Of a DNA stretch of 38,179 bases, positions 575-20,367 are shown one piece after another. The DNA comes from a virus. The DNA lies in IMG/VR virus record IMGVR_UViG_3300020154_000010, positions 1 through 38,179 of that record; one strand, 5' to 3'. Under the pieces are notes generated by a model that saw only the letters and a program-made list of their open reading frames with translations, searched no databases and was not told the DNA's origin. How positions within the stretch are numbered: the first letter of the stretch is position 1; each line of letters opens with the position of its first letter. A program made the position numbers and the translations under genes.

Positions 575-600
575 CTACCTGACCGGGAAGGGTGTCCCTT
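575..600 (-). promoter_or_regulatory. E1: copy of the intergenic GGGGACGTCC-type element (variant)
   Basis: On the minus strand this reads AGGGACACCCTTCCCGG followed by TCAGGTAG. It is one of nine related elements between genes and ends about 30 bases before the TTG start at 545. E1 and E8 are the only copies with ACACCC in place of ACGTCC or ACATCC, and both have the 89-bp repeat just upstream. Promoter is the favoured role; an RNA hairpin or protein operator is possible. Confidence 0.55.
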
Positions 601-633
601 GGCTGGTGGAGGGAGTGTTCCCAAACTTTTGTT

Positions 634-722
634 TTGTCCCAGCTTCTGGGGTAAGCCCCAAAGAGCTGAAAGAGCGGAGTATTATTTTTTAAGTGGGACT
701 AAACAAAAATATAGAAACAACT
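634..722 (-). repeat. 89-bp perfect direct repeat, copy 1 (AT-rich)
   Basis: Identical over 89 bases to 18531-18619 in the same orientation, 17,897 bp apart. It is about 39% GC (35 of 89 by hand count), far below its surroundings. It contains a nested hairpin (AGCT...TGGGG/CCCCA...AGCT), an outer GTCCCA/TGGGAC inverted pair, and a tandem AAAGAGCTG AAAGAGCGG. On the plus strand it also carries ATTATTTTTTAAG and AAACAAAAATATAG. It lies 22 bases after the integrase stop and 33 bases upstream of E1. An upstream control site, a replication origin, a structured RNA or a mobile remnant are all possible. Confidence 0.95.
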
Positions 723-2940: not shown

Positions 2941-3248
2941 AGTCCAGGTACGAGGTCCGACCCATGCCCAGGGGAACCATGTTCGGCATCTGGGACTTGC
3001 GGTTCGGGGAGTTCTGTGGCTTGCCGAGCCGGCGCCCAAACGAGGGGCCCGACGGTCGTTTGGTATGGCCAGAGGGCGAAGATTCCTGGTGGCTGGAGTT
3101 CAGCACTCCGGAGCGGGCACAGAGGTGGCTCCGCTGGTGTGTCGACACGTGGAAGACTTGGCCGCAGGAGTTCGCTCCCAGCGGCTACGGGCGACGGCCG
3201 GAGAAGACACGGCCCGCGGCTACGAGGCGTCGGCAAGCCGACTCATAG
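2937..3248 (+). CDS. Unknown Trp-rich protein (paralogue of previous gene)
   Basis: 103 residues from ATG 2937, which overlaps the previous stop by four bases (ATGA). Upstream in-frame ATG codons would lie deep in the previous gene. MFGIWDLRFGEFCGL and WWLEFSTPERAQRWLRWC mirror the GIWD and W-L-x-x-C motifs of the gene before. A basic tail (GYGRRPEKTRPAATRRR) follows. The 3' end overlaps, tail to tail, the minus-strand gene ending at 3220. Function unknown. Confidence 0.6.
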   Translation: MKSRYEVRPMPRGTMFGIWDLRFGEFCGLPSRRPNEGPDGRLVWPEGEDSWWLEFSTPERAQRWLRWCVDTWKTWPQEFAPSGYGRRPEKTRPAATRRRQADS

Positions 3249-3606
3249 GGGCGTCTGTGGAGGCCTCCCGGGATAAGTCCTGGGGGGCCTTTGTGCTGCG
3301 CGGAACCCACGGCTCTCCACACTCCGTGTACCGCCCCAGGTCGGCTTCCCACGCCCACTCGTCGCGGCCGTAGACGAGTCCCGACCCAGCTCCGTAGACG
3401 GTGATGATGAAGCGTTCCCCCGCGTCTGTCGGCCGCAGCATGAACGCCACGACAGACCCGTACGACCGGAGCAGCCGCGGAAGCTCGTCGGTAGACTGAA
3501 CGGTTTCTCTGGCCAGCGGGTCATCTCCGCTCCACGGGACCCATATCCAGCCGAACGACGTTTGCGAAGGTACGAACGCGCGCAACGCGACACGTAGATG
3601 TGCCAT
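3220..3606 (-). CDS. Unknown protein, single-gene unit
   Basis: 128 residues from ATG 3606, chosen because TAGGAG lies five bases upstream; a longer frame from 3699 has no ribosome site. It reads MAHLRVALRAFVPSQTSFGW, then a mixed beta-rich middle with FIITVYGAGSGLVYGRDEW, ending in a polar tail. It looks like a soluble alpha/beta protein of no family I know. Upstream, TATTCT about 37 bases before the ATG could be a -10 box. The region 3607-3700 also has two CGTAACA repeats. It is insulated by the terminator at 3708-3728, so it is probably transcribed alone, and it converges on the plus-strand trio. Confidence 0.6.
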   Translation of the reverse strand: MAHLRVALRAFVPSQTSFGWIWVPWSGDDPLARETVQSTDELPRLLRSYGSVVAFMLRPTDAGERFIITVYGAGSGLVYGRDEWAWEADLGRYTECGEPWVPRSTKAPQDLSREASTDAPMSRLADAS

Positions 3607-3707
3607 GCGATCTCCTACAAAGGTCCAACTTTCAATGAGAATACGCGAATCGGACACACCGTCTACACATCGTTCGTAACACCTGCGTAACAGCGCCACA
3701 CAACGAC

Positions 3708-3728
3708 AAAGGGCCCCCGAAGGGGCCC
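3708..3728 (-). terminator. Intrinsic terminator after the membrane-HTH gene
   Basis: Minus strand GGGCCCCTTCGGGGGCCC followed by TTTG: a seven-pair GC stem with a short TTCG-containing loop, just after the stop of the gene at 3743. Confidence 0.8.
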
Positions 3729-3742
3729 ATGGGTGTCGCTGG

Positions 3743-4537
3743 TCACGCGGGTTGCAGCTCCGCCTTCATGCGCTTCGCTGCCCGGTCGGCTTCCCAGTCC
3801 TTCAAGTACCGCCTACCGGACCGGTCGCTGACGCCGAAGTACTGCGCGAGGGCCTTGCCGGTAAGGGGCTCGTTGTCGCTGCGCAGATCCTCCACGGCCT
3901 GGTTGATCTCTTCAAGCGTCGGCTTGGTTGACGGGGTGAACACCGCCACTACCGATTCGTCGGGAACATCCTCGTTAACGCATTCAACCTCTGGACCATC
4001 GTCCTCGTCCGCATCCACCGTGTCGTTAACGGCCGTCAGGTGCTGCAGCTCCTCGTCCAGGATCTCAGCGAACTCGTCCGACACCTGCAACACCTGCCCT
4101 GCCAGCATCGGCGTCTCCTGCACCTCCACGTCCTTCCCTGCGGCCACGGCCACATGGATCTGACGCATAAGCGCACCGAACGCCAGCAGGGCGGCAGTGG
4201 GCGGCACAGCGGCCACGATGTACTCAATGGCCGGGGCGTCAGGCCCCACACCGTACACGTTCAGCCCGATGGAGCCGACCGAGCCGGCCACGGTCAGGCC
4301 GATGGCCCACCCGTCCTTGCGCTTGGCCAGGGCAGCCACCAGCATCATGACCTCGCCCGCGACGATGAAGAGGTCAAGGGTCGCTGGCCAGGCCCAGGAC
4401 CTGATTGGGGAGTTCCCGAGTCCGTACGTCGCTGCCACCTCCTGGAGATGTGCGTACGACAGCCAGAACGCTACGGCGGTCAGGACGACGATTACCGCGC
4501 CGGCTGCCACGGTGAGTCGGGTACGGATCGAGTTCAC
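3743..4537 (-). CDS. DUF2637-like membrane protein with C-terminal helix-turn-helix
   Basis: 264 residues, GTG start with AAAGGGA nine bases upstream. The first 130 residues hold about four membrane segments: AAGAVIVVLTAVAFWLSYAH, a stretch around LDLFIVAGEVMMLVAALAK, one around IGLTVAGSVGSIGLNVYGV, and AAVPPTAALLAFGALM. This is the arrangement of the DUF2637/Spd-type proteins of actinobacterial plasmids and phages. An acidic linker follows (about 150-200), then LTGKALAQYFGVSDRSGRRY, a clear helix-turn-helix, near residues 222-245. It could be a membrane-tethered DNA-binding regulator or DNA-anchoring protein. It sits alone between promoter P1, which has a palindromic operator, and a terminator. 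No soluble phage repressor is seen elsewhere, so it is a candidate regulator; that role is inference. Confidence 0.8.
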   Translation of the reverse strand: MNSIRTRLTVAAGAVIVVLTAVAFWLSYAHLQEVAATYGLGNSPIRSWAWPATLDLFIVAGEVMMLVAALAKRKDGWAIGLTVAGSVGSIGLNVYGVGPDAPAIEYIVAAVPPTAALLAFGALMRQIHVAVAAGKDVEVQETPMLAGQVLQVSDEFAEILDEELQHLTAVNDTVDADEDDGPEVECVNEDVPDESVVAVFTPSTKPTLEEINQAVEDLRSDNEPLTGKALAQYFGVSDRSGRRYLKDWEADRAAKRMKAELQPA

Positions 4538-4559
4538 GGTGTGGTCCCTTTCGTCAGAT

Positions 4560-4577
4560 GCCCCTCTTGGGGCGGCT
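4560..4577. repeat. 18-bp dispersed repeat with hairpin, copy 1
   Basis: GCCCCTCTTGGGGCGGCT occurs here and at 6751-6768, identical. GCCCC/GGGGC form a stem. This copy lies in the 5' leader of the membrane-HTH gene, about ten bases after the P1 -10 box. Weaker relatives occur at 6444-6458 and 14893-14910. Confidence 0.75.
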
Positions 4578-4586
4578 GATGGTGTG

Positions 4587-4616
4587 AAAGTAGTCGACTC
4601 AATCGAGTCACGTCAA
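4587..4616 (-). promoter_or_regulatory. P1: sigma70-like promoter with palindromic operator in spacer
   Basis: Minus strand TTGACG (4616-4611), an 18-bp spacer, then TACTTT (4592-4587). The spacer contains the perfect palindrome GACTCGATTGAGTC (4596-4609). The same -35, spacer length and TACTTTCACA are found in P2. It drives the gene at 3743-4537; its -35 overlaps the stop of the gene at 4613. Confidence 0.75.
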
Positions 4617-5026
4617 CCTGCAGCGCCGTTGTCCCCGGTCGGACCGTCTTCCAACTGCACCGTGAACAGCGCGGTCATAGCCTGGCCGATGTATCCCCCT
4701 TCCCCGCCGACGCTGATGGCGTGATCCACCAGTACCGCGCTGCTGTGCCGCTTCTCGCCAAGGGCCTCCGCGGCTTCTGTCTCCGACATGTCCAGCAGGA
4801 TCGCTGCCGTCCGCGGGCCCATCGTTACTCCGCAACCCGTGTCCTGCGACAGTGCCAGCATCAGGAGCGCAGCGTGCTCGCGGACCAGGTTCAGTTCCGC
4901 GTACAGCGCGTCGATGTGCGCCGACTCGTTCAGGGATTCCAGATCCCGCTCTATCAGCGGCTCGTACGGCGCGCAGAGGGGGGTGCACTTGTGCTCGGGG
5001 TTGGTGGCGGCGTCAAAGTCGGACAT
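4613..5026 (-). CDS. Unknown protein after the sigma-like gene
   Basis: 137 residues from ATG 5026, with GAGAGG six bases upstream. It opens MSDFDAATNPEHKCTPLC, continues as a helical region (YEPLIERDLESLNESAHIDALYAELNLV), then VTMGPRTAAILLDMSETEAA and an acidic C-terminus. The Cys-x-x-x-Cys near residues 14-18 may bind metal, but no family is recognised. E2, a hairpin and a CGTTAACG lie between it and the sigma-like gene. The stop overlaps the P1 -35 box, making a compact junction. Confidence 0.7.
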   Translation of the reverse strand: MSDFDAATNPEHKCTPLCAPYEPLIERDLESLNESAHIDALYAELNLVREHAALLMLALSQDTGCGVTMGPRTAAILLDMSETEAAEALGEKRHSSAVLVDHAISVGGEGGYIGQAMTALFTVQLEDGPTGDNGAAG

Positions 5027-5075
5027 GAGGTGCCTCTCGTTAACGGGAGAGGGGCCCCAGGCCGGGACCCCTCTG

Positions 5076-5100
5076 CTACTGCTCCGGGAAGGACGTCCCC
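5076..5100 (-). promoter_or_regulatory. E2: intergenic GGGGACGTCC element
   Basis: Minus strand GGGGACGTCCTTCCCGG then AGCAGTAGCAGAGGGG. It begins at the stop of the sigma-like gene and lies about 50 bases before the ATG at 5026. A hairpin (GAGGGG...CCCCTC) and CGTTAACG (near 5039) follow before the ribosome site. Confidence 0.6.
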
Positions 5101-6435
5101 TCAGCCCTCGGTCAGCGCGTCCACCAGGGACACTCCCTGCTTCGCTGCTGCAGCCTCCAGGGCGAACCGCTCCGACCCTGCCTTGGTCACCAGGTCCAGC
5201 CACTTCTTCGTGAACGCAGCGCGGGCCTTGTCTCGGTCCTTGCGGACCCTGGCCGGCTCCAGGTCGGCAATGCCTTCGCGCTTCATCGTGCGGGCAAGCT
5301 GCGCGTCGTCCTTGAACCGGCCCATGAAACCGAATGACGCGGCCATGATGTACGCCTGACGCGGAGACAGCATGCCGAGCACGCGACGGACGAGGGCCCG
5401 CTTCACGGCGTCCTCGGTGGCCCGCTCCAGGATGGCGCGCTGTGCGTTCAGGGCGACCGAGCCGCGGCCCAGGGCGGCGTTCATCTGAGCCTCTGCTGTG
5501 GACGCCTCAGGGTCGGACTGCCGCTGCGTGTGGAGGGCGCGGAGCATGTCGACAGCGGCGCCGAACTCCGCATTGCGGCAGGGCTGTGCCTCCATCAGGT
5601 CCAGGTCCTCTTCCGTCACGGTGCCGGCCTGGAATCGCTCAATAGCGAGCAACAGGGCCTTGCGCGTCTCCTGGTCAGCCGGCAACGGCATGTTGTCGTA
5701 GATGGCGCGTGCCGGGATGGTCCATTGGACGGGCCGGTAACCGGCCGGAACCACGTCCGTGTCGTTAACGGGCGTCGAGTCGGTCAGTGTGTCCGCAATG
5801 GTGACCGCCTCATTCGCAGTCCCCAAGCCAACAGTCCCGGCAGCCGGCGTGTAGATGCTGACCACGCCCTGGTAGGCCAGGCGGGCAGCGTAGGCAGCTT
5901 CCGGAGACATGCGGACCCTGGATTTGTATGCTCCGCCGTTCAGGGTGGCGACAAGGGCCTTGTCCTGTACCGCGGACTCCGCCATGTTCAGGTAGTCGGC
6001 CTCTGTCAGCGTGTGGTTCACGTCGGCAGCGCGGAAGTGCTTGACCATCTGCCCGAACAGCTTCTTCCCCACGCTGTCGTCGTCGGTGCCGTTCAGCATG
6101 TCGCGGGCACGGGCCGGCAACTCACGCTCCACGTAGCGGTAGGCGTAGGCCCGGAAGCCGTCAACGCTGTCCCCCTCGTACGACACCAGGCACTCCCACG
6201 CAATCAGCATGGCCTCCTGCGTCAAGTCCTCCACATACGCGGCCTTCAGGCCTTCACTGGCGTCCCCTTCGGTGCGTGCGGCAGCGCGACGGGCCAGGGC
6301 GGACAGCTTGGAGTCCAGGTCAAACAGGATGGTCGCGCCAGCGTCCCGGTCGCCTGCCTTGGCTGCAGCAAGAGTCTCGTCAGTGCCGACGTCGGAGAGA
6401 AGAGAGCCGATGACCTGGGCACGAGTGGTGTTCAC
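5101..6435 (-). CDS. Divergent sigma-70-family-like transcription factor
   Basis: 444 residues from GTG 6435, with AAAGAGGGG upstream; this GTG-AAC start mirrors the membrane-HTH gene. Residues about 25-111 look like sigma region 2: AAAKAGDRDAGATILFDL, then VEDLTQEAMLIAWECLVSY and FRAYAYRYVERELPARAR. The DLTQEA and aromatic/basic segment match the core-binding and -10 recognition helices. Residues about 350-412 resemble region 4: VLGMLSPRQAYIMAASFGF, DDAQLARTMKR, then VRKDRDKARAAF. The middle of about 230 residues is unlike common sigma factors. If functional it would redirect host RNA polymerase to phage promoters. It has its own sigma70-type promoter (P2) and a long leader. The family call is from motifs only. 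Confidence 0.65.
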   Translation of the reverse strand: MNTTRAQVIGSLLSDVGTDETLAAAKAGDRDAGATILFDLDSKLSALARRAAARTEGDASEGLKAAYVEDLTQEAMLIAWECLVSYEGDSVDGFRAYAYRYVERELPARARDMLNGTDDDSVGKKLFGQMVKHFRAADVNHTLTEADYLNMAESAVQDKALVATLNGGAYKSRVRMSPEAAYAARLAYQGVVSIYTPAAGTVGLGTANEAVTIADTLTDSTPVNDTDVVPAGYRPVQWTIPARAIYDNMPLPADQETRKALLLAIERFQAGTVTEEDLDLMEAQPCRNAEFGAAVDMLRALHTQRQSDPEASTAEAQMNAALGRGSVALNAQRAILERATEDAVKRALVRRVLGMLSPRQAYIMAASFGFMGRFKDDAQLARTMKREGIADLEPARVRKDRDKARAAFTKKWLDLVTKAGSERFALEAAAAKQGVSLVDALTEG

Positions 6436-6561
6436 GATGTGCTGCCCCTCTTTTGGGCATGCCGGATGGAGGCACGGCGGTGCCACGGCATGGGTTGGTG
6501 GGAGTTCGTCAGGAACCAGCGGCCCGGGTGATCGGTCCCGGCCGCGTGTGACGACAATGTG
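6436..6561 (-). other. Structured 5' leader of sigma-like gene, possible leader peptide
   Basis: Between the P2 -10 box and the GTG start, GGCACCGCCGTGCC forms a hairpin nested inside ATGCCG...CGGCAT. A 19-codon frame, ATG (6491) MPWHRRASIRHAQKRGSTS, ends in TCGTGA and so overlaps the GTG start by four bases. It lacks a good ribosome site, so it may be chance. The leader could allow translational control. Confidence 0.35.
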
Positions 6562-6591
6562 AAAGTACGCGCCTCAATTGAGTCGCGTCAA
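6562..6591 (-). promoter_or_regulatory. P2: sigma70-like promoter with palindromic operator
   Basis: Minus strand TTGACG (6591-6586), an 18-bp spacer containing CTCAATTGAG (6573-6582), and TACTTT (6567-6562) followed by CACA. It is almost identical to P1 in both boxes, spacing and the position of the palindrome. It drives the sigma-like gene. Confidence 0.75.
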
Positions 6592-6786
6592 CTCTTCGTT
6601 CACAACACTGACACACCGTGTGCGCACCAAAGCCCCTGGTAACCGAGGTGCAACGCAGATCGTGCCTAGGTATGAGGCGATAACGACCCGTGGATGGCAT
6701 GTGAAGGTTGGGATTGTGTGAAGAGTTGACCTTGGGAACAGGCGCCAGACGCCCCTCTTGGGGCGGCTATCGCAGGCGCAGAGCCG
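6592..6786. other. Intergenic stretch between P2 and the polymerase terminator
   Basis: No gene is supported in about 195 bases. The only minus-strand frame here (start 6700) would run through P2. It contains the second copy of the 18-bp repeat at 6751-6768. Confidence 0.5.
6751..6768. repeat. 18-bp dispersed repeat with hairpin, copy 2
   Basis: GCCCCTCTTGGGGCGGCT, identical to 4560-4577. Here it lies downstream of the polymerase terminator and about 160 bases before P2, not in a clear leader. Confidence 0.75.
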
Positions 6787-6821
6787 AAAAGGGCCCCCTG
6801 GGGGTGGTCACCAAGGGGCCC
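6787..6821 (-). terminator. Intrinsic terminator after DNA polymerase
   Basis: Minus strand GGGCCCC, a 21-base loop region, GGGGCCC, then TTTTC. It lies seven bases after the polymerase stop. Confidence 0.75.
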
Positions 6822-6827
6822 GGTCGG

Positions 6828-8684
6828 TCAGTAGTCAGCGCCGTAGAGCGACCCCCACGACCGTCCGCCGATCTCGGCGTCAGCGGCGATGGGGACGCCC
6901 TTCAGGTCGAACGTCATGCACTCGGTGATGGTGCGAGCGACGTCCGCCGCGTCCTCTTTGGGGGCAGACGCGAGGACTTCATCGTGAATCGGCAGGCGCA
7001 GGAAGGGGACCAGTCCGCGCTGGTCCATGTGGATCAAGGCCTGGCCCAGGCAGTCACGGGCCGTGGACTGAACCAGGTAGTTCGTCACGGCGTACGTACG
7101 ATCCCGGTCCAGCGGCAGGCGGTGCCCCGTAATGGACACGGCCACCATCTGGTTGTTGAAGGCCTCAATGCGCCAGTCCTTGGCCGCGCGGCCGATCTCC
7201 GGGTACACACGGTCGTACGTCGCCATGGCGGACTGAACCTGCGCGAGTGGAGCGCCAGTCTGCCGAGACACGGTTGCTGCCCCACCGCCGTAGACCTTGC
7301 CGAACGCGATTCCCTTGGACACCTTGCGGTCCTTGTCCGTGAACCCTTCACCGAACACGAGTCGTGCCGTAAACGAGTGCAGGTCCTCGCCGGCCGCAAT
7401 GGCGGTCTTCATCCTCTTCACGTCGGCCAGCGCTGCCAGTACCCGCAGCTCCACGGCCTGGAAGTCGGTGCTGATGATGACGTGACCCTCGTCGGCCAGC
7501 AGCGCGCGGCGAATCATCTTGTCCGACGACGGCAGGGTCTGGACTGCGGGGTTCGTGACGGACATGCGGAACGTCCGGGCCTGCATGGACTGAATGTTGG
7601 GGTGGATAAGCCCCTTGGCGTCCACGTTGTCCAGGAAGTTCTGGGCATATGCGCTTCGCCACTTGCCGGCCCTCTTGGACCGCAGCACGGCGTCAGCCAG
7701 CAGGTTCGACCGTCGGGAGCCGATCGGCTTCCAGTCGCGGTCCAGGTCGGCCAGCGCCATCAGGACCGCCTTGTCGACCTTCCAGTTGCCAGAAGCGGTC
7801 TTCTCGGACAGGTGCTCTCCCATGCCGAGAAGTGCATCCGCCACCTTGCGGCCAGAGTTGACGGAATCGACGCCGTACCGGCCGGCCACTGCGGCGAACT
7901 TGTCCGCCTGCTGCGCAAGGTCCCTCTCCAGGCTCTCCGCGTACTCCTGGTCAAGGACCATGCCGGTACGGACCATCTGTGCGCAGATGCGGGCCACGGT
8001 GTGCTCGTAAACGGCCAGCCTCTTCGGGACGCCGAGATTGGCCAGCGTCGCCTCCAGGCGGGGACGCAGGCGGGACGTCAGGATCACGTCCAGGAGGCCG
8101 TACTCCAGGTACGTGGGGTGGTCCAGGGGGACCTTGGCGAACCCCTCCGCAACCTTCAGCTTCAGCTCCTTGAAGACGGACTTGAGGCCGTCCTGCGTGT
8201 CCGGCGCTGCAGGGTCCACGTAGTGCGCTGACAGCGGCTTGAGACCAGAACCAACGCCGCCTTCCATCTGCTGCCGCGGGTCGATGAGCTTGGCCAGGAT
8301 CTGCGTATCCGTGGCCTTGGCGCAGGTGGCCTCCAGGGGGACCCCCAGGTGCTCGTCACAGACCAGCGCGTCGAACCCTGCCCAGTTGTGCCCCGTGATG
8401 TCCGGCAGGACCTCCAGGGCCCAACGAGCGGCTTCTACGTACAGCGGACCGTGTTCGATGGGGAGTGCGTACGCTTCCGTCTCCGTACCGAACTGGGCCA
8501 GGCGGAGGAAGCCGGGGCCCCAGGCGTAGATCTTCAGGCCGCACGTCTCCGTGTCGACAGCGACAGGTGTGCGGGATTCGGCCTGCCGTCGAACCCAGTC
8601 CTGGAAGTGCGCCAAGTCGTGGTGTCGTTCGACCACGAATCCGTCCCAGGCCTGGCCGTTCAGACTTCCGCTGAAATGGCGCAT
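6828..8684 (-). CDS. polA: Family A (pol I-like) DNA polymerase with 3'-5' exonuclease domain
   Basis: Replicates phage DNA. 618 residues from ATG 8684, with GAGAGGGG upstream. The exonuclease domain shows VDTETCGL (Asp44, Glu46), HNWAGFDAL (Asp105) and EYGLLDV (Tyr195, Asp199), so proofreading residues are present. The polymerase part has motif A STDFQAVELRVLA (Asp407, Glu412), motif B RKVSKGIAFGKVYG (Arg453, Lys457) and motif C LPIHDEV (His567, Asp568, Glu569). There is no 5'-3' exonuclease domain, as is usual for phage pol I-like enzymes. The 5' leader carries E3, a hairpin and CGTTAACG; a terminator follows the gene, so it appears to be its own unit. Confidence 0.97.
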   Translation of the reverse strand: MRHFSGSLNGQAWDGFVVERHHDLAHFQDWVRRQAESRTPVAVDTETCGLKIYAWGPGFLRLAQFGTETEAYALPIEHGPLYVEAARWALEVLPDITGHNWAGFDALVCDEHLGVPLEATCAKATDTQILAKLIDPRQQMEGGVGSGLKPLSAHYVDPAAPDTQDGLKSVFKELKLKVAEGFAKVPLDHPTYLEYGLLDVILTSRLRPRLEATLANLGVPKRLAVYEHTVARICAQMVRTGMVLDQEYAESLERDLAQQADKFAAVAGRYGVDSVNSGRKVADALLGMGEHLSEKTASGNWKVDKAVLMALADLDRDWKPIGSRRSNLLADAVLRSKRAGKWRSAYAQNFLDNVDAKGLIHPNIQSMQARTFRMSVTNPAVQTLPSSDKMIRRALLADEGHVIISTDFQAVELRVLAALADVKRMKTAIAAGEDLHSFTARLVFGEGFTDKDRKVSKGIAFGKVYGGGAATVSRQTGAPLAQVQSAMATYDRVYPEIGRAAKDWRIEAFNNQMVAVSITGHRLPLDRDRTYAVTNYLVQSTARDCLGQALIHMDQRGLVPFLRLPIHDEVLASAPKEDAADVARTITECMTFDLKGVPIAADAEIGGRSWGSLYGADY

Positions 8685-8725
8685 GCGGGCGTCCCCTCTC
8701 CGTTAACGCTTGTGGACAGGGGCAA

Positions 8726-8753
8726 GGCCGGACCCCCGTCAGGAGGCCCGGCC
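8726..8753 (-). other. Leader hairpin H1 (junction hairpin family)
   Basis: Minus strand GGCCGGGCC ... GGTCCGGCC, with CTCCTGACGG in the loop. Similar stems occur at 13819, 14294, 14930 and 15192. It lies between E3 and the polymerase start and has no U-tract, so it is more likely a leader structure than a strong terminator. Confidence 0.6.
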
Positions 8754-8763
8754 TGGGCTTGCA

Positions 8764-8790
8764 CTACTGGTCCGGGAAGGACGTCCCCTA
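8764..8790 (-). promoter_or_regulatory. E3: intergenic GGGGACGTCC element
   Basis: Minus strand TAGGGGACGTCCTTCCCGG then ACCAGTAGTG. The first TAG is the stop codon of the small gene at 8788. It lies about 80 bases before the polymerase start. Confidence 0.6.
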
Positions 8791-8898
8791 GCGACGCGGA
8801 CCAGGGTGGATACGACCGCATCGGCACTGCGGATTCCGGAGCCTGGCCCGGTCAGACCGGTAGTGGTACCGCCGTAGTCGCAGCAGAAGAGCAATCAC
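8788..8898 (-). CDS. 36-residue basic protein coupled to primase-helicase
   Basis: GTG at 8898 overlaps the primase-helicase stop by four bases (GTGA). The frame encodes MIALLLRLRRYHYRSD, then RNPQCRCGRIHPGPRR. It is Arg-rich with a Cys-x-Cys, and its stop abuts E3. Coupling, and the fact that it exactly fills the gap, support it; there is no family match and no independent ribosome site. It could be chance. Confidence 0.4.
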   Translation of the reverse strand: MIALLLRLRRYHYRSDRARLRNPQCRCGRIHPGPRR

Positions 8899-11402
8899 GA
8901 CACACCCCCGAAGATGCCGGGCCCGTCGGCCGGCGCGTCGGCATGGTCAGCGGTGACGCGGATTCCCACCAGGGCCACACCAGTCGTGGTGTTCCGGCGC
9001 TGTACCTGCCGCTCCTCCATTGCGTCCAGGAAGGTTCGGCGGGTCCAGCGTTCACGCATGGGCAGGCCCTCCGCCTCACACCAGTGCGTGTAGACCTGGT
9101 ACGCCTGGCCCGCGGACAGCTCTCCGTCCTCGCACGGCTCAAGTACGCCGGGGTAGAAGCCGGCCAGGGCGTCGGACGTGCGCCGGTAGTCCTTGGTGGC
9201 GTCGATGATGCGCTGCGGGTCCTGGAGACCGTGCTGGTACCAGTCCATGGCACCCTGAACGGCCCACGCGGCGATACCCTCCGCCTCTGCCATCAGCTTC
9301 CGGTCCAGCGTGTGATCCCGCTCGTCAGGCTCAAAGAACCGCTTGAAGGGGATGAGCTTGACGCGTCGCCAGAGGCCTTCGTCCTGGCCACGGAACTTAG
9401 GCTTGAAGTTCGTGGCCAGCATCAGCAGGAACGTGGGCTTGAAGGTGAAGAACTCCTGACGCAGGAAGCGTGCGGAGATCTCGTCCTTGCCCGTGATGCG
9501 CTTCAGGACAGCCTCCGACATGGGCTTGCCGGACTCGCCCTCCGACGCCATCACGAACCGGCTGCCGCGCAGGGCCGCAATGTCGTTGGGGATGCCGCCG
9601 CTGGCCCGCTCCTCGAACGTGCTGAACGGCGTCGTCTCCGTGATGGGACGGAAGACGGTCGTCAGTGTGTCCGTAAGCACGCTCTTGCCGTTGGCGCCCT
9701 TGCCGTGCAGCACAGCGAAGCACTGCTCTGAGGTGTGGCCGGTCGTGCCGTAACCGACGAGCCGCTGCATGTACGCCGGCATGTCCGGCATTCCGGGGAA
9801 GATCTCTTCCAGGAACTGGAGGAATCGCGGGCAGGTCGCGCCAGGCCGGTAGTCCAGGTCCAGGCAGTACGTCAGCAGGTCCTCCTTTCGATGCTCACGG
9901 ATGGCGCCCGTGCGCAGGTCCACCGTGCCGTTTCGGAAGGACAGGAGGTCCGGCCGGTCATCAAAGTCCGTAGGGTTCACGTGAACAGCAGGCACCGACT
10001 GAAGCTCGGTCAGGAGATCGTCAATCTTGCGCCGAGTCGTAAACCCCCTGGCGGCCTTGCGCAGGGCCTCCCCAGGGTCTTCCTTCTGGTCGGGGGTCTT
10101 CTCCGCGGACTTCTCCTTGGCAGCGGCCATCAGGGCACGGCCGATGAAGTGGACCGCCTGTCGGACCTTGGTGTCGCTGCGCTTCCAGACACGGCCAGTC
10201 CACACGAAGAAGCCGAGTCCCTCCGCGTACTTGATCGCCCCGTCAGCGAAGGACACCAGGAGGTACGCGTTCAGGACGTCGGACGTGCCGTAGGCCCGCA
10301 GTGCCTCGTAGTACAGATCCGTGACACGGCGGACCTGTTCCGGGTCGGGCACGAGATCCCCCGTGTCGACGTCGGTCAGGCCGACCGGCTGCGGAGTGGC
10401 CGTGGAGGCTGCGTTAACGGCCTCGTCCAGCTCATCCTTGAATGAGGTCACTCGGGTCTCCCGCCAGTGCGTCAGGTCAGTCTTGGGCCCCAGGTCGGGG
10501 ATCGCGAGCTTGTGCGCGGTGACGCCGTTCGCGGCCAGGCCATCCACCAGCCGCTGCGTGAAGCCGCTGCCGGCCGTGTCGTTGTCGCCGGCCAGGATCA
10601 CCCGCTTGTTCTTCAGGCCTGCGGCGAGTTCGGCAACGAGGTCCGGGGAGTTGACGAGGGAGGCCCCGCGGATGATGACCGCGTTGTATCCGGCCGCAAC
10701 CGCGGTCAGGCCGTCGCCAGGGCCCTCCGTGACGATGTACGTGTCCGTGTCCTCGTTGGCCAGGAGCACGCCGTACGCTGCCCAGCGCAGGCCGTCGGGG
10801 TTGGTCAGGGATACCCAGCGGGCGGGGCAGTCTCCGGACACGTCACGGCCCTGGAGACCGCGGGCCACGCCATCGAACCCGTACAGGGGGACGATCAGGC
10901 GCGGGAACTTGCGGAAGCCGGGGGAGCGATAGTTGCGCTGCCGCCCCTCCGCGTCCGTGAACCGCAGGCCGGGAAGCTGTCCGTCGTCCAGGCCAAGGCC
11001 TAGGCGAACCAGATCACCATCGATCCCGAACCGGTCGTTGGCGTACATGCGTGCTGCTGAGGCAGTCTCCGTCTCGCCCCACTGCAATGCCTCCGCTGCA
11101 CTGTCCAGGTACACCCGCAGGGCGGCCACCTCTGCTGTGCCGACCGTTTCCGGCTTGGCAGCGCTCACCGTGCGGGCCGCACCCGTGGCGCCGAACATGT
11201 CGGGCCAGCGCAGGCCTGCAGCGCGAATGACGTCGCTGGTGTCGCAGCCGGCGCGGCACGTCATGCGGACCCTGCCGTCGTCCCCTATCCAGATACGCAG
11301 CGACGGTCGGCTGTCGTTGTGATGCGGACAGCGCGCGATGTACCCGCCATCCGGCTGGTAGTCCACGTCCTGGAAGCGGGCCAGGATCGCGTTAACGTCC
11401 AT
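8895..11402 (-). CDS. Primase-helicase: CHC2 zinc finger, TOPRIM, D5/SF3 helicase
   Basis: Makes primers and unwinds DNA at the phage fork. 835 residues. The N-terminus has a CHC2-type zinc site (Cys25, His28, Cys49, Cys53, in YIARCPHHND and MTCRAGCD). A TOPRIM core follows: YIVTEGPGDGLTAV (about 215), then VILAGDNDTAGSG. The C-terminal half is a D5-type superfamily 3 helicase: VLHGKGANGKSVLTDTL (Walker A, about 570), RFVMASEGESGKPMSE, and FKPTFLLMLATNFKP (sensor region). Fusion of a primase with a D5 helicase is common in actinophages. The start ATG gives MDVNAIL, with CGTTAACG inside codons 3-5 and GAGAGGAG upstream. E4 lies about 35 bases upstream. Confidence 0.95.
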   Translation of the reverse strand: MDVNAILARFQDVDYQPDGGYIARCPHHNDSRPSLRIWIGDDGRVRMTCRAGCDTSDVIRAAGLRWPDMFGATGAARTVSAAKPETVGTAEVAALRVYLDSAAEALQWGETETASAARMYANDRFGIDGDLVRLGLGLDDGQLPGLRFTDAEGRQRNYRSPGFRKFPRLIVPLYGFDGVARGLQGRDVSGDCPARWVSLTNPDGLRWAAYGVLLANEDTDTYIVTEGPGDGLTAVAAGYNAVIIRGASLVNSPDLVAELAAGLKNKRVILAGDNDTAGSGFTQRLVDGLAANGVTAHKLAIPDLGPKTDLTHWRETRVTSFKDELDEAVNAASTATPQPVGLTDVDTGDLVPDPEQVRRVTDLYYEALRAYGTSDVLNAYLLVSFADGAIKYAEGLGFFVWTGRVWKRSDTKVRQAVHFIGRALMAAAKEKSAEKTPDQKEDPGEALRKAARGFTTRRKIDDLLTELQSVPAVHVNPTDFDDRPDLLSFRNGTVDLRTGAIREHRKEDLLTYCLDLDYRPGATCPRFLQFLEEIFPGMPDMPAYMQRLVGYGTTGHTSEQCFAVLHGKGANGKSVLTDTLTTVFRPITETTPFSTFEERASGGIPNDIAALRGSRFVMASEGESGKPMSEAVLKRITGKDEISARFLRQEFFTFKPTFLLMLATNFKPKFRGQDEGLWRRVKLIPFKRFFEPDERDHTLDRKLMAEAEGIAAWAVQGAMDWYQHGLQDPQRIIDATKDYRRTSDALAGFYPGVLEPCEDGELSAGQAYQVYTHWCEAEGLPMRERWTRRTFLDAMEERQVQRRNTTTGVALVGIRVTADHADAPADGPGIFGGVS

Positions 11403-11436
11403 GTGCGGGGACTCCTCTCGTCAGGGGTCTGTCAAT

Positions 11437-11460
11437 CCCTGACCGGGAAGGACGTCCCCT
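11437..11460 (-). promoter_or_regulatory. E4: intergenic GGGGACGTCC element
   Basis: Minus strand AGGGGACGTCCTTCCCGG then TCAGGGATTGACAG. It lies immediately after the terminator at 11469-11497 and about 35 bases before the primase-helicase start. A post-terminator position favours a promoter. It lacks the GTAG seen in the other copies. Confidence 0.6.
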
Positions 11461-11468
11461 GCAACGAC

Positions 11469-11497
11469 AAAGCCCCCGGCCAGCAAGGGCCAGGGGC
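11469..11497 (-). terminator. Intrinsic terminator after resolvase-like gene
   Basis: Minus strand GCCCCTGGCC, loop CTTGCT, GGCCGGGGGC, then TTTG. Ten pairs with one G-T wobble. Confidence 0.75.
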
Positions 11498-11507
11498 AGG
11501 TGTCGGA

Positions 11508-12008
11508 TCAAGCGTTAACGGCAGGCTGCGCGGCTCGGACAGCGGCCAGTACCGCGGCGAACTCGGACAGGGTCCAGGTCCAGTAGCCTCGCGCGTTGTT
11601 GATCAGCGGCGGAGGTATTTCCAGGGTCAGCGGGAAACGTGCGTACATCTCCGCTGTGATGTGCACGCGGGCCAGGGCCGGACCCTTGCCACGCGTCTTG
11701 TGGATGACAACGCCGTAGGGGAAGCCTGCGTTAACGGCCTCCACTTCGGCCTGTCGCAGCCATGTGGGCACGGCCGGCGACTTGACGTCCTTGGCCTCCA
11801 GGATGAACGGCCAGGCGTGCAGGTCACCGACGTCCAGGGCGCCTTCCTGCTGCTGCCGCTTGATGTTGCGCCAGTCCAGCGCGTTCAGGAAGCGTCGCGC
11901 AGGCGGGAGGTCCATCCAGTCGTCCCGGTATAGGCCCAGAGTGACGTTCAGGAAGTCGCGTATGGCGGACTCCCAGGCGGTACCGCGGGCCTTGGAGGGG
12001 TTGGTCAC
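11508..12008 (-). CDS. PD-(D/E)XK nuclease, Holliday-junction-resolvase-like
   Basis: 166 residues, ATG overlapping the upstream stop by four bases. KARGTAWESAIRDFL (Glu13) followed by GDLHAWPFILEAKDVK gives Asp62, Glu71 and Lys73, the D...ExK active site of PD-(D/E)XK enzymes; the early Glu is typical of resolvases. The rest, with FPYGVVIHKTRGKG, fits a compact nuclease that resolves branched DNA before packaging. Last gene of a chain of coupled small genes and followed by a terminator. A role in replication or recombination agrees with the nearby primase, polymerase and exonuclease. A VRR-NUC-type nuclease is an alternative. Confidence 0.75.
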   Translation of the reverse strand: MTNPSKARGTAWESAIRDFLNVTLGLYRDDWMDLPPARRFLNALDWRNIKRQQQEGALDVGDLHAWPFILEAKDVKSPAVPTWLRQAEVEAVNAGFPYGVVIHKTRGKGPALARVHITAEMYARFPLTLEIPPPLINNARGYWTWTLSEFAAVLAAVRAAQPAVNA

Positions 12009-12946
12009 CGCGCCCCCTTGACGATCGACTGGATGGACCGAATCAGATGCGCGTCCGAGGCTCCGCCGTTCTTGATGTTGGACTCGATGCGGGTCAGCGC
12101 GTCGCGCAGCTTCGCGTTCTCGTCCCGAGCACGGTTGAGATCGAACGCCAACCGCTTGCCGTAGTTGTGCTGCCCGCGAAGCTCCGCGCGCAGGCGGGCG
12201 TTCTCGTCACGCGCGCTCTCAAGCTCCGACAGGTTGAAATCCGCACGCTCCCGCTCGCTGTCCATCAGGGCGTCGACTCGTTCAAAGTCAGCGCGCAGGC
12301 GGGCGTTCTCGGCGGCAAGCCCCTGCACCTGCGCATGGCAGTCGGCCAGCAACTCGCTGTGCTCTGCGTCAGCCACGGCCATGGCGCGCGTAACAGCCTT
12401 GTCGGCCAGGGGCAGGGAACCCTTGATCGCTTCCTCGTAGCACTCTCGCCGGTCGTTCCGCTCGTCAGCGGCAGGTGCCTGGTCCGTGGGGCAGCCACAC
12501 CCCCAGTTGTGCGTGAGGGGTGTCGGGCAGGCGCGTTCGGCAGCGTCGTATTTGCTACCACCGATCACAGCGGGGTTGCCGTGCGACGGACAGTCCTCGT
12601 CCGGGTACTGAGGGCCCTCTGTGCGGTAGTCACCGACCGGGCCACACGTGCACGCGCTGTCACGCACCCTTCGCCGGGGCACGGTCCCTTCCTGCAAGCG
12701 CCGTTGGAGTTCCGCCGCAGCCTCGTCAGACATGGGGGCGGTCAGCCTCCGATCAAATTCAGCAGCGTGGTCAACCGGGCAGTCCTCGGGAGGTGCAGGG
12801 TCACAGACGCATTCCGGGGTACTGCCATCGCTGTCGTACTGGTCAGACCACTCCGGAAACGCGTGCCCGAATCGGGTATCCAGATCGCTGCCGTCCAAGA
12901 ACGCTCTCTTGTCGGCGTTCGCACCCTTGCTGTGCTCGTTGCTCAT
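12005..12946 (-). CDS. Cys-rich, coiled-coil protein of unknown function
   Basis: 313 residues, ATG overlapping the upstream stop (ATGA). The N-terminal half is acidic with several Cys pairs: CVCDPAPPEDC, CTCGPVG, ACPTPLTHNWGCGC. The C-terminal half is a long coiled coil with heptad repeats AAENARLRADF, ARDENARLRAEL and ARDENAKLRDAL, which are repeated at DNA level too. The Cys pairs may bind zinc. The layout suggests an oligomerising scaffold or DNA-binding accessory, but no family is recognised. It is coupled at both ends to neighbours. Confidence 0.75.
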   Translation of the reverse strand: MSNEHSKGANADKRAFLDGSDLDTRFGHAFPEWSDQYDSDGSTPECVCDPAPPEDCPVDHAAEFDRRLTAPMSDEAAAELQRRLQEGTVPRRRVRDSACTCGPVGDYRTEGPQYPDEDCPSHGNPAVIGGSKYDAAERACPTPLTHNWGCGCPTDQAPAADERNDRRECYEEAIKGSLPLADKAVTRAMAVADAEHSELLADCHAQVQGLAAENARLRADFERVDALMDSERERADFNLSELESARDENARLRAELRGQHNYGKRLAFDLNRARDENAKLRDALTRIESNIKNGGASDAHLIRSIQSIVKGAR

Positions 12947-13086
12947 GACCCCTCCACTTCGTTAACCAACTCAGGTGTGATCCACGCTGCGCGGACAGCG
13001 GGAGTGAGGCAGGCGACGTCGACAGGCTCTTGGTCAGGCACGGGCCAGACCGGGTGGCAGTTGTCGGGGATGCCGGTTCGGTTCAC
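12943..13086 (-). CDS. 47-residue protein, coupled at both ends
   Basis: GTG 13086 overlaps the upstream stop by four bases, with GGAGG five bases before it. The stop TGA overlaps the next ATG (ATGA). Encodes MNRTGIPDNCHPVWPVPDQE, then PVDVACLTPAVRAAWITPEL. No family recognised. Perfect fit between two coupled genes and a strong ribosome site make it convincing. Confidence 0.7.
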   Translation of the reverse strand: MNRTGIPDNCHPVWPVPDQEPVDVACLTPAVRAAWITPELVNEVEGS

Positions 13087-13280
13087 GAGTCCTCCAGTTC
13101 ACGGCGCCAGAGTCGCGCTTCCGTTCGGCGGATCTGCCGACGGTGCTGACGGCCGTTGTCGCCCTCGTCCATGTAGCGGTTGGGCAGGATGCGGGAGTTG
13201 CCGGACACCCCGCTGTTGCGCTTGAAGCGTCGGTGCCAGCGCCAGCGGCCAGTGAGGGGGACAGGGTCACGACGGAACAT
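13083..13280 (-). CDS. Very basic 65-residue protein
   Basis: ATG 13280, chosen because AAGGAGG lies ten bases upstream with CGTTAACG filling the whole gap between ribosome site and start. Sequence MFRRDPVPLTGRWRWHRRFK, later RQHRRQIRRTEARLWRRELE, is rich in Arg and Trp. Possibly a nucleic-acid-binding peptide; no family recognised. The stop overlaps the next GTG. Confidence 0.65.
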   Translation of the reverse strand: MFRRDPVPLTGRWRWHRRFKRNSGVSGNSRILPNRYMDEGDNGRQHRRQIRRTEARLWRRELEDS

Positions 13281-13282
13281 CG

Positions 13283-13384
13283 TTAACGCCTCCTTCTCCA
13301 CGGGCGGACGTCCAGGGCCCAGCAGAGGGCAGTGATGACGGACAGGAGGGTCAGGACTCGGAACAGGACGTCGATGGGGGTCAC
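13283..13384 (-). CDS. 33-residue single-pass membrane peptide
   Basis: GTG 13384 overlaps the upstream stop by four bases. MTPIDVLFRVLTLLSVITAL continues CWALDVRPWRRRR: one hydrophobic helix followed by a positive tail, predicting the C-terminus inside. The stop TAA lies in the CGTTAACG that precedes the next start, two bases away. The role is unknown. Confidence 0.6.
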   Translation of the reverse strand: MTPIDVLFRVLTLLSVITALCWALDVRPWRRRR

Positions 13385-13590
13385 GGCTGTACCTCCGTCA
13401 CTTCCACGCGGATACGGAAGGTTGCCGTGTCTCCGCCGTTGGCCGGCGTCTCGTACTCGACCGTGATTGAGTCGTCGTCCCCGCCAGTCATGCGAATCCG
13501 GCTCTGCGGTCCGCTGTTCGGGAAGGTGTACCCCGGCAGCCATTCAGCGAGGGTGCTCAGGGCGTCGTCTGTGATGTTCTCTGGGGTCAC
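13381..13590 (-). CDS. Acidic 69-residue protein of unknown function
   Basis: GTG 13590 overlaps the upstream stop by four bases. It begins MTPENITDDALSTLAEWLPG, a helix, followed by beta-rich DSITVEYETPANGGDTATFR and a C-terminal strand. No known family recognised. It is part of the seven-gene coupled chain 13778 to 11508. Confidence 0.65.
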   Translation of the reverse strand: MTPENITDDALSTLAEWLPGYTFPNSGPQSRIRMTGGDDDSITVEYETPANGGDTATFRIRVEVTEVQP

Positions 13591-13778
13591 TGGCCGGCCC
13601 CCTGCACTGTCTGGCGAACCTCAGCGCCGCGGGCCACGGCCTGGCCGATGGCGTCCTGGTACCGGCCCCAGTCCTTGCGCTGTGTCGCGTTGGGACAGAC
13701 GACAATGACGTCCCCCAGTCCCATGACCCTGATGTCTCCCAGAGGAGCGGCGTACAGCTTGCCTACCAGTCGGCGCAT
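13587..13778 (-). CDS. 63-residue protein of unknown function
   Basis: ATG 13778 with AGGGAG seven bases upstream and CGTTAACG (near 13793) before that. MRRLVGKLYAAPLGDIRVMG followed by DVIVVCPNATQRKDWGRYQD suggests a small alpha/beta protein. It heads the coupled chain; a leader hairpin (13819-13844) lies upstream. Confidence 0.65.
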   Translation of the reverse strand: MRRLVGKLYAAPLGDIRVMGLGDVIVVCPNATQRKDWGRYQDAIGQAVARGAEVRQTVQGAGQ

Positions 13779-13818
13779 GTGCGTCTCCCTGTCGTTAACG
13801 GCTGTTGGCACGGCCCAA

Positions 13819-13844
13819 GCCGGACCCCAGGGAAGGGGCCCGGC
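13819..13844 (-). other. Leader hairpin H2
   Basis: Minus strand GCCGGGCCCC, loop TTCCCT, GGGGTCCGGC, followed by TTGGGCCGTGCCAACAG. Ten pairs with one G-T wobble. Confidence 0.65.
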
Positions 13845-13859
13845 CGGTGGCAGGGAGGG

Positions 13860-14255
13860 TCAGATCTTGGTGAGTCTGGAGCCGTAGTTGTAGTGGCTGA
13901 CCAGGACAGGCAGCGTCCAGTTCTGGTAAGCGTCACCGACGTCAGGTTCGGTGCAGGAGAACAGCGGCATACCGCTGCCGTCGTACGCTCCCGTGAACGC
14001 CCACATGTCGCCCGAGGGGTCCCGGTACTTGGCCTTCAGGTCGTACGTCACGCCCTCGTACTCGTAGGTGTCGTCGGCCTGGGCCGTCGGTGCCATCAGG
14101 GCGTCGTAAACGCGCCCGTTGGCCCCGTCACCAGCGCCGTAGAGTTGCTTGCCCGTAAGGCTCACAAGCCAGGCGTGCTCCTCAGCGGACAGGGTCAGCG
14201 TGTAGACGTCCTCCGTGGTGGTGATCTCGCGCGTCGTCTTGATGGCTTCAGCCAT
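13860..14255 (-). CDS. 131-residue protein of unknown function
   Basis: ATG 14255 with GAGAGGA about six bases upstream. It starts MAEAIKTTREITTTEDVYTL, continues TLSAEEHAWLVSLTGKQLY, then a beta-rich region with YEYEGVTYDLKAKYRDPSGD and TLPVLVSHYNYGSRLTKI. The pattern of short strands suggests a small beta domain. No domain recognised. Hairpins flank it on both sides. Confidence 0.7.
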   Translation of the reverse strand: MAEAIKTTREITTTEDVYTLTLSAEEHAWLVSLTGKQLYGAGDGANGRVYDALMAPTAQADDTYEYEGVTYDLKAKYRDPSGDMWAFTGAYDGSGMPLFSCTEPDVGDAYQNWTLPVLVSHYNYGSRLTKI

Positions 14256-14293
14256 TGCAGGTCCTCTCATGGAAGGGGTCTGGCACGGCCCAA

Positions 14294-14319
14294 GCCGGAC
14301 CCCCGTCAGGAGGCCCGGC
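14294..14319 (-). other. Leader hairpin H3
   Basis: Minus strand GCCGGGCC, CTCCTGACGG region, GGTCCGGC, then TTGGGCCGTGCCAGACC. Stem, wobble position and flank match H2. Confidence 0.65.
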
Positions 14320-14333
14320 CAGCGGCAGGGAGG

Positions 14334-14870: not shown

Positions 14871-14929
14871 GGCGTGTCCCTCTTCCGTTAACGCCCCTAT
14901 GAGGGCGGCTGGCTGTTGGCACCCCGAAG

Positions 14930-14955
14930 GCCTGGCCCCCGTCAAGGGACCAGGC
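14930..14955 (-). other. Leader hairpin H4
   Basis: Minus strand GCCTGGTCCC, TTGAC loop, GGGGGCCAGGC, then CTTCGGGGTGCCAACAG. The stem bases differ from H2/H3 (CTGG for CGGG) but pairing is kept. A second small stem (CGCCCT/AGGGGCG) and CGTTAACG lie nearer the start at 14870. Confidence 0.6.
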
Positions 14956-14964
14956 AGGTGCGGG

Positions 14965-15156: not shown

Positions 15157-15191
15157 GCGGGACCTCCAGGAAGGGTGTTGGCACGGCCCAA

Positions 15192-15217: not shown

Positions 15218-15222
15218 AAGGG

Positions 15223-16138: not shown

Positions 16139-16195
16139 GCGGAACCCTCCACGGGGTGGCTGACGAGTGACTGAAGATGGGGCGCGAACCCTCTG

Positions 16196-16220
16196 CTACT
16201 GACCGGGGAGGACGTCCCCT
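16196..16220 (-). promoter_or_regulatory. E5: intergenic GGGGACGTCC element
   Basis: Minus strand AGGGGACGTCCTCCCCGG then TCAGTAGCAGAGGG. About 58 bases before the RDF-like start. GGGGA/TCCCC can pair around a five-base loop. Confidence 0.6.
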
Positions 16221-16254: not shown

Positions 16255-16279
16255 CTACTGACCGGGCAGGACGTCCCCC
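16255..16279 (-). promoter_or_regulatory. E6: GGGGACGTCC element overlapping a gene end
   Basis: Minus strand GGGGGACGTCCTGCCCGG then TCAGTAGCAGAGGG. It encodes the last residues (DVLPGQ) and TAG stop of the gene at 16255-16695. It is 59 bases from E5, so the two form a tandem pair. Confidence 0.6.
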
Positions 16280-16724: not shown

Positions 16725-16752
16725 GCTACCAGTCCGGGGAGGACGTCCCCTG
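16725..16752 (-). promoter_or_regulatory. E7: intergenic GGGGACGTCC element
   Basis: Minus strand CAGGGGACGTCCTCCCCGG then ACTGGTAGCGACAG. It lies right after the strongest terminator of the window (16769-16810) and about 35 bases before an ATG. This position is the best support for a promoter role. Confidence 0.65.
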
Positions 16753-17577: not shown

Positions 17578-17578
17578 G

Positions 17579-18470: not shown

Positions 18471-18496
18471 CTACTGACCGGGAAGGGTGTCCCCCA
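18471..18496 (-). promoter_or_regulatory. E8: GGGGACGTCC-type element (variant)
   Basis: Minus strand GGGGGACACCCTTCCCGG then TCAGTAGTGACGG. It shares the ACACCC variant with E1 only, and is 34 bases downstream of the 89-bp repeat, as E1 is from copy 1. Confidence 0.6.
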
Positions 18497-18701: not shown

Positions 18702-19646
18702 CTACAGCGCTGCCGCCTGCACCGCAAGGTTGGCGATCATTTCGTTGATGCGAGCCTTCAGCGCCGCACGCTGGTCAGGGTCCAGCTTCTCGGCCCGCTT
18801 GGTCGTTGTGATGAACGACCGCTCCACCCGCTCCAATGCCTCCAGGTCCCGCTTCAGCTCCTCCTCCGCCGATACCTCGTCCTCGGGGTCAGCGGCCGGC
18901 AGCTCACCGCGCATCGCTGCTGCCACGATCTCCGCACGGCGCCGAGCATCCTCGCGGGCCAGCTCCGTGCGCCCCTTCCTGGGCAGGTTCGTGCCGTGCT
19001 TCTCGTACAGCGCGTAAACCGCCTCCGTGGGGGACAGGCGCGGGAACGCCTCCTTGGCCTCCGGATACAGCCGCTCGAACGTGGCCCGGTCGCTGTCCAG
19101 ACTGCGCAGATGCTCCACCACCACATCAGACATGCGGTTGCGCACGGCCTTGGCCAGTGACTTGTGCGTGGCCCAGCGGTGCACGTCCTCTTCCGTGACG
19201 CCCTCCCGCGCACGCACGAACAGGTCCCTGGCGATGTCCTTCGTGAACTTCCGCTCAGCGATGATGTCCGGCAGGCCAGCCTTGTTGCGCATCTTCAGCC
19301 GGGCCTCCAGCAGGATCTCCGCCAGAACGCGGGCCTGGTCCGCGGCCTCCAGGCCCAAGTCGACAGCCTTGCGCGTCTTCTCCACAGCCTCGTCAAGCAG
19401 CGGGTCGACGCCCTCCACATCGTGGTACGAGGCAATCTGTAGCTCCGTGCTGGCCTGCGCTGCGGCCAGTGCCACGGACAGCGCGTTTAGCAGCGGCTGA
19501 CGGTCCTGCGGCCGGCATGCGTCGATAGCAGCCCTGGCGGTCTGGGCAGCACTGTCCCGGTCCTGCTGGCTGGCCCCGTCCACAACCAGGGATCGCACGC
19601 GGTCTACAGCCTGTTGTGCTACCTGCTTGTTCGTCTGCCTGGGCAT
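18702..19646 (-). CDS. Helical 314-residue protein of unknown function
   Basis: ATG 19646 with GGGGAG five bases upstream. Almost wholly helical and charged: MPRQTNKQVAQQAVDRVRSL, a coiled-coil-like first 130 residues, then DIIAERKFTKDIARDLFVRA, EEDVHRWATHKSLAKAVRNR, and a C-terminal coiled coil with VSAEEELKRDLEALERVERS. No membrane segment or catalytic motif. I do not recognise it. It is bounded by a terminator on each side and has its own upstream region with a 9-bp inverted repeat, so it is probably a separately regulated single gene. Confidence 0.8.
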   Translation of the reverse strand: MPRQTNKQVAQQAVDRVRSLVVDGASQQDRDSAAQTARAAIDACRPQDRQPLLNALSVALAAAQASTELQIASYHDVEGVDPLLDEAVEKTRKAVDLGLEAADQARVLAEILLEARLKMRNKAGLPDIIAERKFTKDIARDLFVRAREGVTEEDVHRWATHKSLAKAVRNRMSDVVVEHLRSLDSDRATFERLYPEAKEAFPRLSPTEAVYALYEKHGTNLPRKGRTELAREDARRRAEIVAAAMRGELPAADPEDEVSAEEELKRDLEALERVERSFITTTKRAEKLDPDQRAALKARINEMIANLAVQAAAL

Positions 19647-20340: not shown

Positions 20341-20367
20341 CTACCAGTCCGGGGAGGATGTCCCCCG
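20341..20367 (-). promoter_or_regulatory. E9: intergenic GGGGACGTCC-type element
   Basis: Minus strand CGGGGGACATCCTCCCCGG then ACTGGTAGCGACAG, very like E7. About 30 bases before the dNMP kinase start and two bases after the stop of the 51-residue gene. Confidence 0.6.

What the first reader, a model, noticed from the sequence alone, without database searches (positions are those of the whole stretch)
5101..6435. Phage sigma-like factor as possible switch for the early regulon
Regions resembling sigma 2 and sigma 4 flank an unusual 230-residue middle. The gene has a sigma70-type promoter of its own while other early genes have E elements. This suggests a cascade: host polymerase reads P2, the sigma-like protein then opens E elements. 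I am not aware of a described pair of this kind in this phage type. The fold call rests on motifs only.
Basis: partly seen in the sequence, partly recalled or inferred. Interest (0 to 1): 0.75.

Follow-up and report, generated by a model that had tools for sequence, protein, structure and literature searches.

The report
Phage sigma factor and its promoters
A Streptomyces phage carries a gene for its own sigma factor, the part that tells the cell's RNA polymerase where to start, and a repeated DNA motif in front of its early genes looks like that protein's promoter; similar pairs occur in relatives of phage phiC31, so this is a well-supported but untested example of a known kind of viral switch.

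Summary
Window 5101-6435 (minus strand, GTG at 6435, 444 aa) encodes a divergent sigma-70-family protein. Region 2 passes Pfam's cut-off. Region 4 is found by profile against PDB and by a confident AlphaFold2 model. The gene lies after DNA polymerase I, as in phiSASD1, Dubu, TG1 and phiC31. RefSeq already calls several homologues "RNA polymerase sigma factor"; the phiC31 and phiSASD1 depositors gave no function.

E elements are real: GGGGACGTCCTNCCCGG, 9 copies with up to 3 mismatches, against 1.75 expected, all on the gene strand, all before early genes. The sigma gene has none; it has a conserved host-type promoter with a palindrome in its spacer. The window encodes a phiC31-type repressor.

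Relatives carry different versions of the motif beside their own sigma gene. Best model: repressor holds the sigma promoter; once free, host polymerase makes sigma; sigma opens E elements. The last step is inferred. Motif and recognition-helix divergence could not be separated from general divergence. New member of a known kind.

The parts
5101..6435 (-). phage sigma factor gene, 444 aa
   Evidence: Pfam Sigma70_r2, PHROG 15865 'RNA polymerase sigma factor' E 1.1e-118, homologues in the same place in phiSASD1, Dubu, TG1, phiC31
6091..6378 (-). sigma region 2 (about residues 20-115)
   Evidence: VIA rows for this part with rmsd about 3 over 80-95 residues, e.g. 5h6x Z 9.9, rmsd 3.1, 93 aligned
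5419..6090 (-). variable middle (about residues 116-339), partly low-confidence in the model
5188..5418 (-). sigma region 4 (about residues 340-416)
   Evidence: AlphaFold2 of residues 328-428: pLDDT 86, pTM 0.73; structural matches; profile match to RpoD/SigA region 4, best E 3.7e-4
6570..6585 (.). palindrome in the spacer of that promoter (CGACTCAATTGAGTCG, one mismatch here), likely repressor operator
   Evidence: operator role inferred
5084..5100 (-). E element directly after the sigma stop, before gene 4613-5026
   Evidence: 0 mismatches; placement
8772..8788 (-). E element before DNA polymerase I
   Evidence: 0 mismatches
11443..11459 (-). E element before primase/helicase
   Evidence: 0 mismatches; a terminator-like hairpin lies just upstream at 11472-11497
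16203..16219 (-). E element before the RDF-like gene 15428-16138
   Evidence: 0 mismatches; PF18897 Gp3-like
16262..16278 (-). second E element before the RDF-like gene, overlapping the end of ORF 16255-16695
   Evidence: 0 mismatches, placement
16734..16750 (-). E element before ORF 16255-16695
   Evidence: 0 mismatches
18478..18494 (-). E element before the exonuclease gene 17579-18436
   Evidence: 2 mismatches; exonuclease PHROG 298
20349..20365 (-). E element before the dNMP kinase gene 19761-20312
   Evidence: 1 mismatch; PF21448 DNMK
583..599 (-). weak E element before gene 171-545
   Evidence: 3 mismatches
4583..4616 (-). second host-type promoter with the same palindrome, before the DUF2637 gene 3743-4537
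   Evidence: DUF2637
18702..19646 (-). phage repressor c homologue
   Evidence: PF25746 E 4.9e-63

Best explanation
The gene encodes a phage sigma factor that redirects the Streptomyces RNA polymerase core to the E elements, which are its early promoters. Its own transcription starts at a host-type promoter with a palindrome in the spacer. In a lysogen the phage repressor (18702-19646) probably sits on that palindrome; on infection or induction the host holoenzyme reads it, sigma accumulates, and region 4 (upstream 17-bp block) and region 2 (weaker block about 20-28 bases from its 5' end) open the E elements before the exonuclease, RDF, primase, polymerase, dNMP kinase and other early genes. 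Shown: sigma regions 2 and 4 by sequence and model, E elements above chance and placed before early genes, conservation of promoter, palindrome and E positions. Inferred: binding to core polymerase, recognition of E, repressor binding to the palindrome.
For: Sigma folds. E elements above chance and in front of early genes. In 8 of 8 rows of this clade (window, L003, L004, L005, L009, L010, L013, L014; L005 and L010 have identical proteins) a clade-specific E copy begins within about 3 nt of the end of the sigma stop codon, no copy with fewer than 3 mismatches to any tested consensus lies in the 120 nt before the sigma start, and the palindrome lies upstream (perfect in 7, one mismatch in the window); TTGAC-N18-TAnnnT was found in 6 of 8 (palindrome of the window). 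In the other 23 rows a motif copy begins 47-55 nt before the sigma start in 22; the exception, L035, has its own motif 51 nt before an alternative start. The motif type changes with the sigma region-4 helix. A pattern close to E (GGGGACGTCCTNYCCGG) occurred in 26 IMG/VR contigs; the 2 with more than one copy (6 and 3) are the 2 whose fetched stretches encode this sigma. In three phages with the other motif types (phiC31, Rowa, TG1) a copy stands 129-147 nt before a tRNA gene, which fits a promoter better than a translation signal.
Against: No experiment. Foldseek gave no match at E up to 0.001 for the whole model (best 0.052) or for region 4 alone (best 0.72); the whole-protein model is poor (pLDDT 68, pTM 0.31). 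No Pfam region-4 family was listed for any of 29 members at E up to 0.1. A 17-bp upstream block is long for a -35 element, and in this clade it has partial dyad symmetry. Motif distance correlates with the region-4 helix (0.61) no better than with DNA polymerase (0.63); the partial correlations are 0.37 and 0.41. The downstream block is weak. The consensus motifs were derived from the same loci in which they were then placed.
Confidence: 0.75

Rival explanations
1. E elements are binding sites of another phage activator that recruits the host holoenzyme; the sigma-like protein serves other promoters.
For: The upstream block is long (17 bp) and partly symmetric in this clade, which suits a dimeric DNA-binding protein.
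Against: The symmetry is not kept in the L014 version or in the phiC31-type motifs. The sigma gene is the neighbour of a motif copy in every row (for L035). No other regulator was tested for the same pattern, so this is not excluded.
Confidence: 0.13
2. E elements act in RNA (antitermination, processing or translation), not as promoters.
For: In this clade the block can pair with itself (GGGGA...TCCCC), and stem-loops follow some copies (read by eye).
Against: The pairing is not kept in L014 or in the phiC31-type motifs; copies of the other motif types stand before tRNA genes; the window has no Rfam match at gathering score.
Confidence: 0.07
3. The protein is a sigma relative that has lost promoter recognition and only blocks or re-tunes the host polymerase.
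For: Region 4 is divergent and unseen by Pfam.
Against: Region 4 still models as a sigma-4 fold and is present in all 29 aligned members.
Confidence: 0.05

Closest known systems
phiC31 gp12 family (phiC31, phiBT1, TG1; RefSeq 'RNA polymerase sigma factor')
   Same: Homologous protein (26% identity to phiC31 gp12), same place after DNA polymerase I, repeated motif before early genes, palindromes upstream of the sigma gene
   Different: Motif GGTYRCCGACTCCCTTM instead of E; a motif copy 47-51 nt before the sigma gene itself; palindrome CTACTCACGTGAGTAG
phiSASD1 gp13 and Dubu gp36 (Sasdunavirus, Dubuvirus)
   Same: 72% and 55% identity, same gene order, same promoter-palindrome, E-type elements
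   Different: Dubu uses GGRGAGGTYCTCTCCGG; phiSASD1 has no annotated repressor gene
Phage-encoded sigma factors with their own promoters (7-11 and phiEco32; PMC4331800, abstract seen)
   Same: A phage sigma factor with its own promoters beside promoters of the host sigma
   Different: Different host and phage type; no sequence comparison was made here

Membership tests
sigma-70 family | region 2 (core binding, -10 recognition) | tested here: met
   PF04542 above the curated cut-off in the window protein; 26 of 29 members match at E up to 0.1; region-2 structures among the listed VIA rows
sigma-70 family | region 4 helix-turn-helix (-35 recognition) | tested here: met
   Profile A3 against PDB: 42 hits at E up to 0.1, all named sigma factors, best 3.7e-4; model pLDDT 86; all 50 listed VIA rows come from RNA polymerase or sigma-factor entries by title, Z 8.0-9.3. 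Against: Foldseek E 0.72 at best, no Pfam region-4 match
sigma-70 family | binds core RNA polymerase and directs initiation | not testable with these tools
   needs biochemistry
phiC31 gp12 / PHROG 15865 sigma family | sequence homology over most of the length | tested here: met
   PHROG 15865 E 1.1e-118 over residues 18-436; tblastn to phiC31 gp12 over residues 65-372; alignment and tree of 29 rows, in which the 7 rows of this clade are one side of a branch with 100/100 support
phiC31 gp12 / PHROG 15865 sigma family | gene directly after DNA polymerase I | tested here: met
repressor-controlled early switch of the phiC31 type | repressor c gene | tested here: met
   PF25746 E 4.9e-63
repressor-controlled early switch of the phiC31 type | repressor binds the palindrome at the sigma promoter | not testable with these tools
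   palindrome conserved; binding not shown

The most novel reading that the evidence does not exclude
phiC31-like Streptomyces phages carry a series of diverged sigma/promoter pairs, each sigma reading its own 14-17-bp block, that act as the master switch of the lytic programme under the repressor; the clade of this window has given up sigma self-activation, or never had it, and keeps the gene under a host promoter and repressor operator alone.
Probability: 0.5. Interest if true: 0.65.

Novelty: new member of a known kind. Interest (0 to 1): 0.5.

Why it matters
If true, it names the activator of the early promoters in the phage group that gives Streptomyces genetics its vectors, and offers a ready set of sigma/promoter pairs that may not cross-talk and could be used as switches in Streptomyces.

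Tried and rejected
Promoter scan: found no sigma70-type promoter in 3000-20500 under its rule, and terminator-like sites hardly more often than in shuffles (9 against 7.8), so terminators before E elements are only suggestive. De novo motif counts without an intergenic mask often returned coding repeats; a masked version was needed for the remaining loci. A test whether motif distance follows the region-4 helix beyond general divergence (20 of 21 loci with a motif class, L017 dropped as a near-copy of L018) was not decisive. Swervy, a Microbacterium phage with a related primase, gave no credible sigma hit and no E-like motif, but it is one control only. AbbeyMikolon has a sigma of the same group and its own motif. 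GenBank records of the phiC31 early region list no promoter features. Paper searches for the sigma/promoter pair showed no description in their listings or in the passages I read; the phiC31 originals are not held. Foldseek for the whole model and for region 4 gave no E up to 0.001.

Rows dropped: of 33 relatives, A2 used 28 plus the window; L011, L022, L027, L034 and L040 were left out as apparent near-copies by their match data, without a separate test. A3 used 28 of those 29 (L005 is identical to L010). Dubu is not in A2.

Full report
What it is. The window is an IMG/VR virus record of 38179 bases, a Streptomyces phage read in reverse, related to phiSASD1 and Dubu. It has an integrase, an RDF-like protein and a repressor c homologue, so it looks temperate. 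The finding's gene is on the minus strand, 5101-6435, after primase (8895-11402) and DNA polymerase I (6828-8684), the order also seen in phiSASD1, Dubu, phiC31 and TG1.

Is it a sigma factor? Sigma region 2 passes Pfam's cut-off and PHROG 15865, labelled RNA polymerase sigma factor, matches at E 1.1e-118. A profile of 29 members against PDB sequences gave 50 hits at E up to 1; 48 are sigma factors by name (the other two are 8zfk and 9sob), some through the N-terminal part, most through the C-terminal part. The C-terminal part alone gave 42 hits at E up to 0.1, all named sigma factors, best 3.7e-4. The whole-protein model is weak, but its listed structural matches are dominated by sigma factors. 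The C-terminal part folds with pLDDT 86 and pTM 0.73, and all 50 listed VIA rows come from RNA polymerase or sigma-factor entries, Z 8.0-9.3. Against this, Foldseek E-values are poor and no Pfam region-4 family matched. I take regions 2 and 4 as established at the level of homology.

E elements. The consensus GGGGACGTCCTNCCCGG has 9 matches with up to 3 mismatches, where shuffles give 1.75 on average and 6 at most. All are on the gene strand, between 583 and 20365, 36-123 nt before a start codon. The late region has none. A weaker block, CAGTAGTG-like, follows 1-2 nt after the upstream block in 20 of 28 copies from four phages; its score was 213, against 182-191 in 5 shuffles.

The sigma gene's own promoter. 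In 8 of 8 rows of this clade no motif copy with fewer than 3 mismatches lies in the 120 nt before the sigma start. They have the palindrome CGACTCAATTGAGTCG (one mismatch in the window) and, in 6 of 8, TTGAC-N18-TAnnnT around it. The same promoter and palindrome stand before the DUF2637 gene in the window, and the palindrome also recurs downstream of the sigma gene, before the next larger gene, in Dubu, phiSASD1 and L005. In the phiC31-type rows a palindrome of the CTACTCACGTGAGTAG kind lies 211-220 nt before the sigma gene in 11 of 12. I recall, without access to the papers, that the phiC31 repressor binds such repeats and that phiC31 early promoters work only in infected cells.

Comparison. 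Other family members carry other motifs: GGTYRCCGACTCCCTTM in the phiC31 type, GGCATTCGACTCNCT in the Rowa type, GGTAACCGACTCGCTAG in L025, L032 and L038, GGRGAGGTYCTCTCCGG in Dubu, GGAGAGGTCCTCACCTG in L013. In 22 of 23 rows outside the window's clade a copy begins 47-55 nt before the sigma gene; the last, L035, has a copy 51 nt before an alternative start. So the other clades look self-activating and this one does not. The motif type changes with the region-4 helix, but equally with polymerase divergence, so co-divergence alone is not proof. In IMG/VR, an E-like pattern is found more than once only in the two contigs that encode this sigma; for the 24 single-copy contigs only the fetched stretch was checked.

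Mechanism and novelty. The most likely order is repressor, then host-type promoter of sigma, then sigma, then E elements. Homologues are named as sigma factors in RefSeq and in one paper's gene table (PMC8782336, passage), but the original depositors gave no function, and the listings and passages seen do not describe the pair. It is a new member of a known kind with a clear, cheap test.

Noticed in passing
window, 25 places from 2736 to 37093: The 8-base palindrome CGTTAACG occurs 25 times; GTTAAC occurs 30 times against 2.5 in shuffles. Of the 17 copies inside genes of my list, 16 are in the same reading frame. It is also present, less often, in phiSASD1 and L005. It may be a genome-wide protein-binding site.
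   Followed up: partly
window 631-722 and 18528-18619: A 92-base A+T-rich repeat, 99% identical, lies after the integrase gene and after the repressor gene, each about 30 bases upstream of a weak E element (583-599 and 18478-18494; one search shows the stretches).
   Followed up: partly
window 4583-4616: A second host-type promoter with the same palindrome precedes the DUF2637 gene, which suggests that this gene is expressed together with sigma as an immediate-early gene.
   Followed up: partly
L003 18490-19051: phiSASD1 has no annotated repressor gene where Dubu has one and the window has a repressor homologue, yet it keeps the palindromes.
   Followed up: no
L016 20611, L021 19035, L006 31116: In phiC31, Rowa and TG1 a motif copy stands 129-147 nt before a tRNA gene, so the supposed sigma regulon may include tRNAs.
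   Followed up: partly
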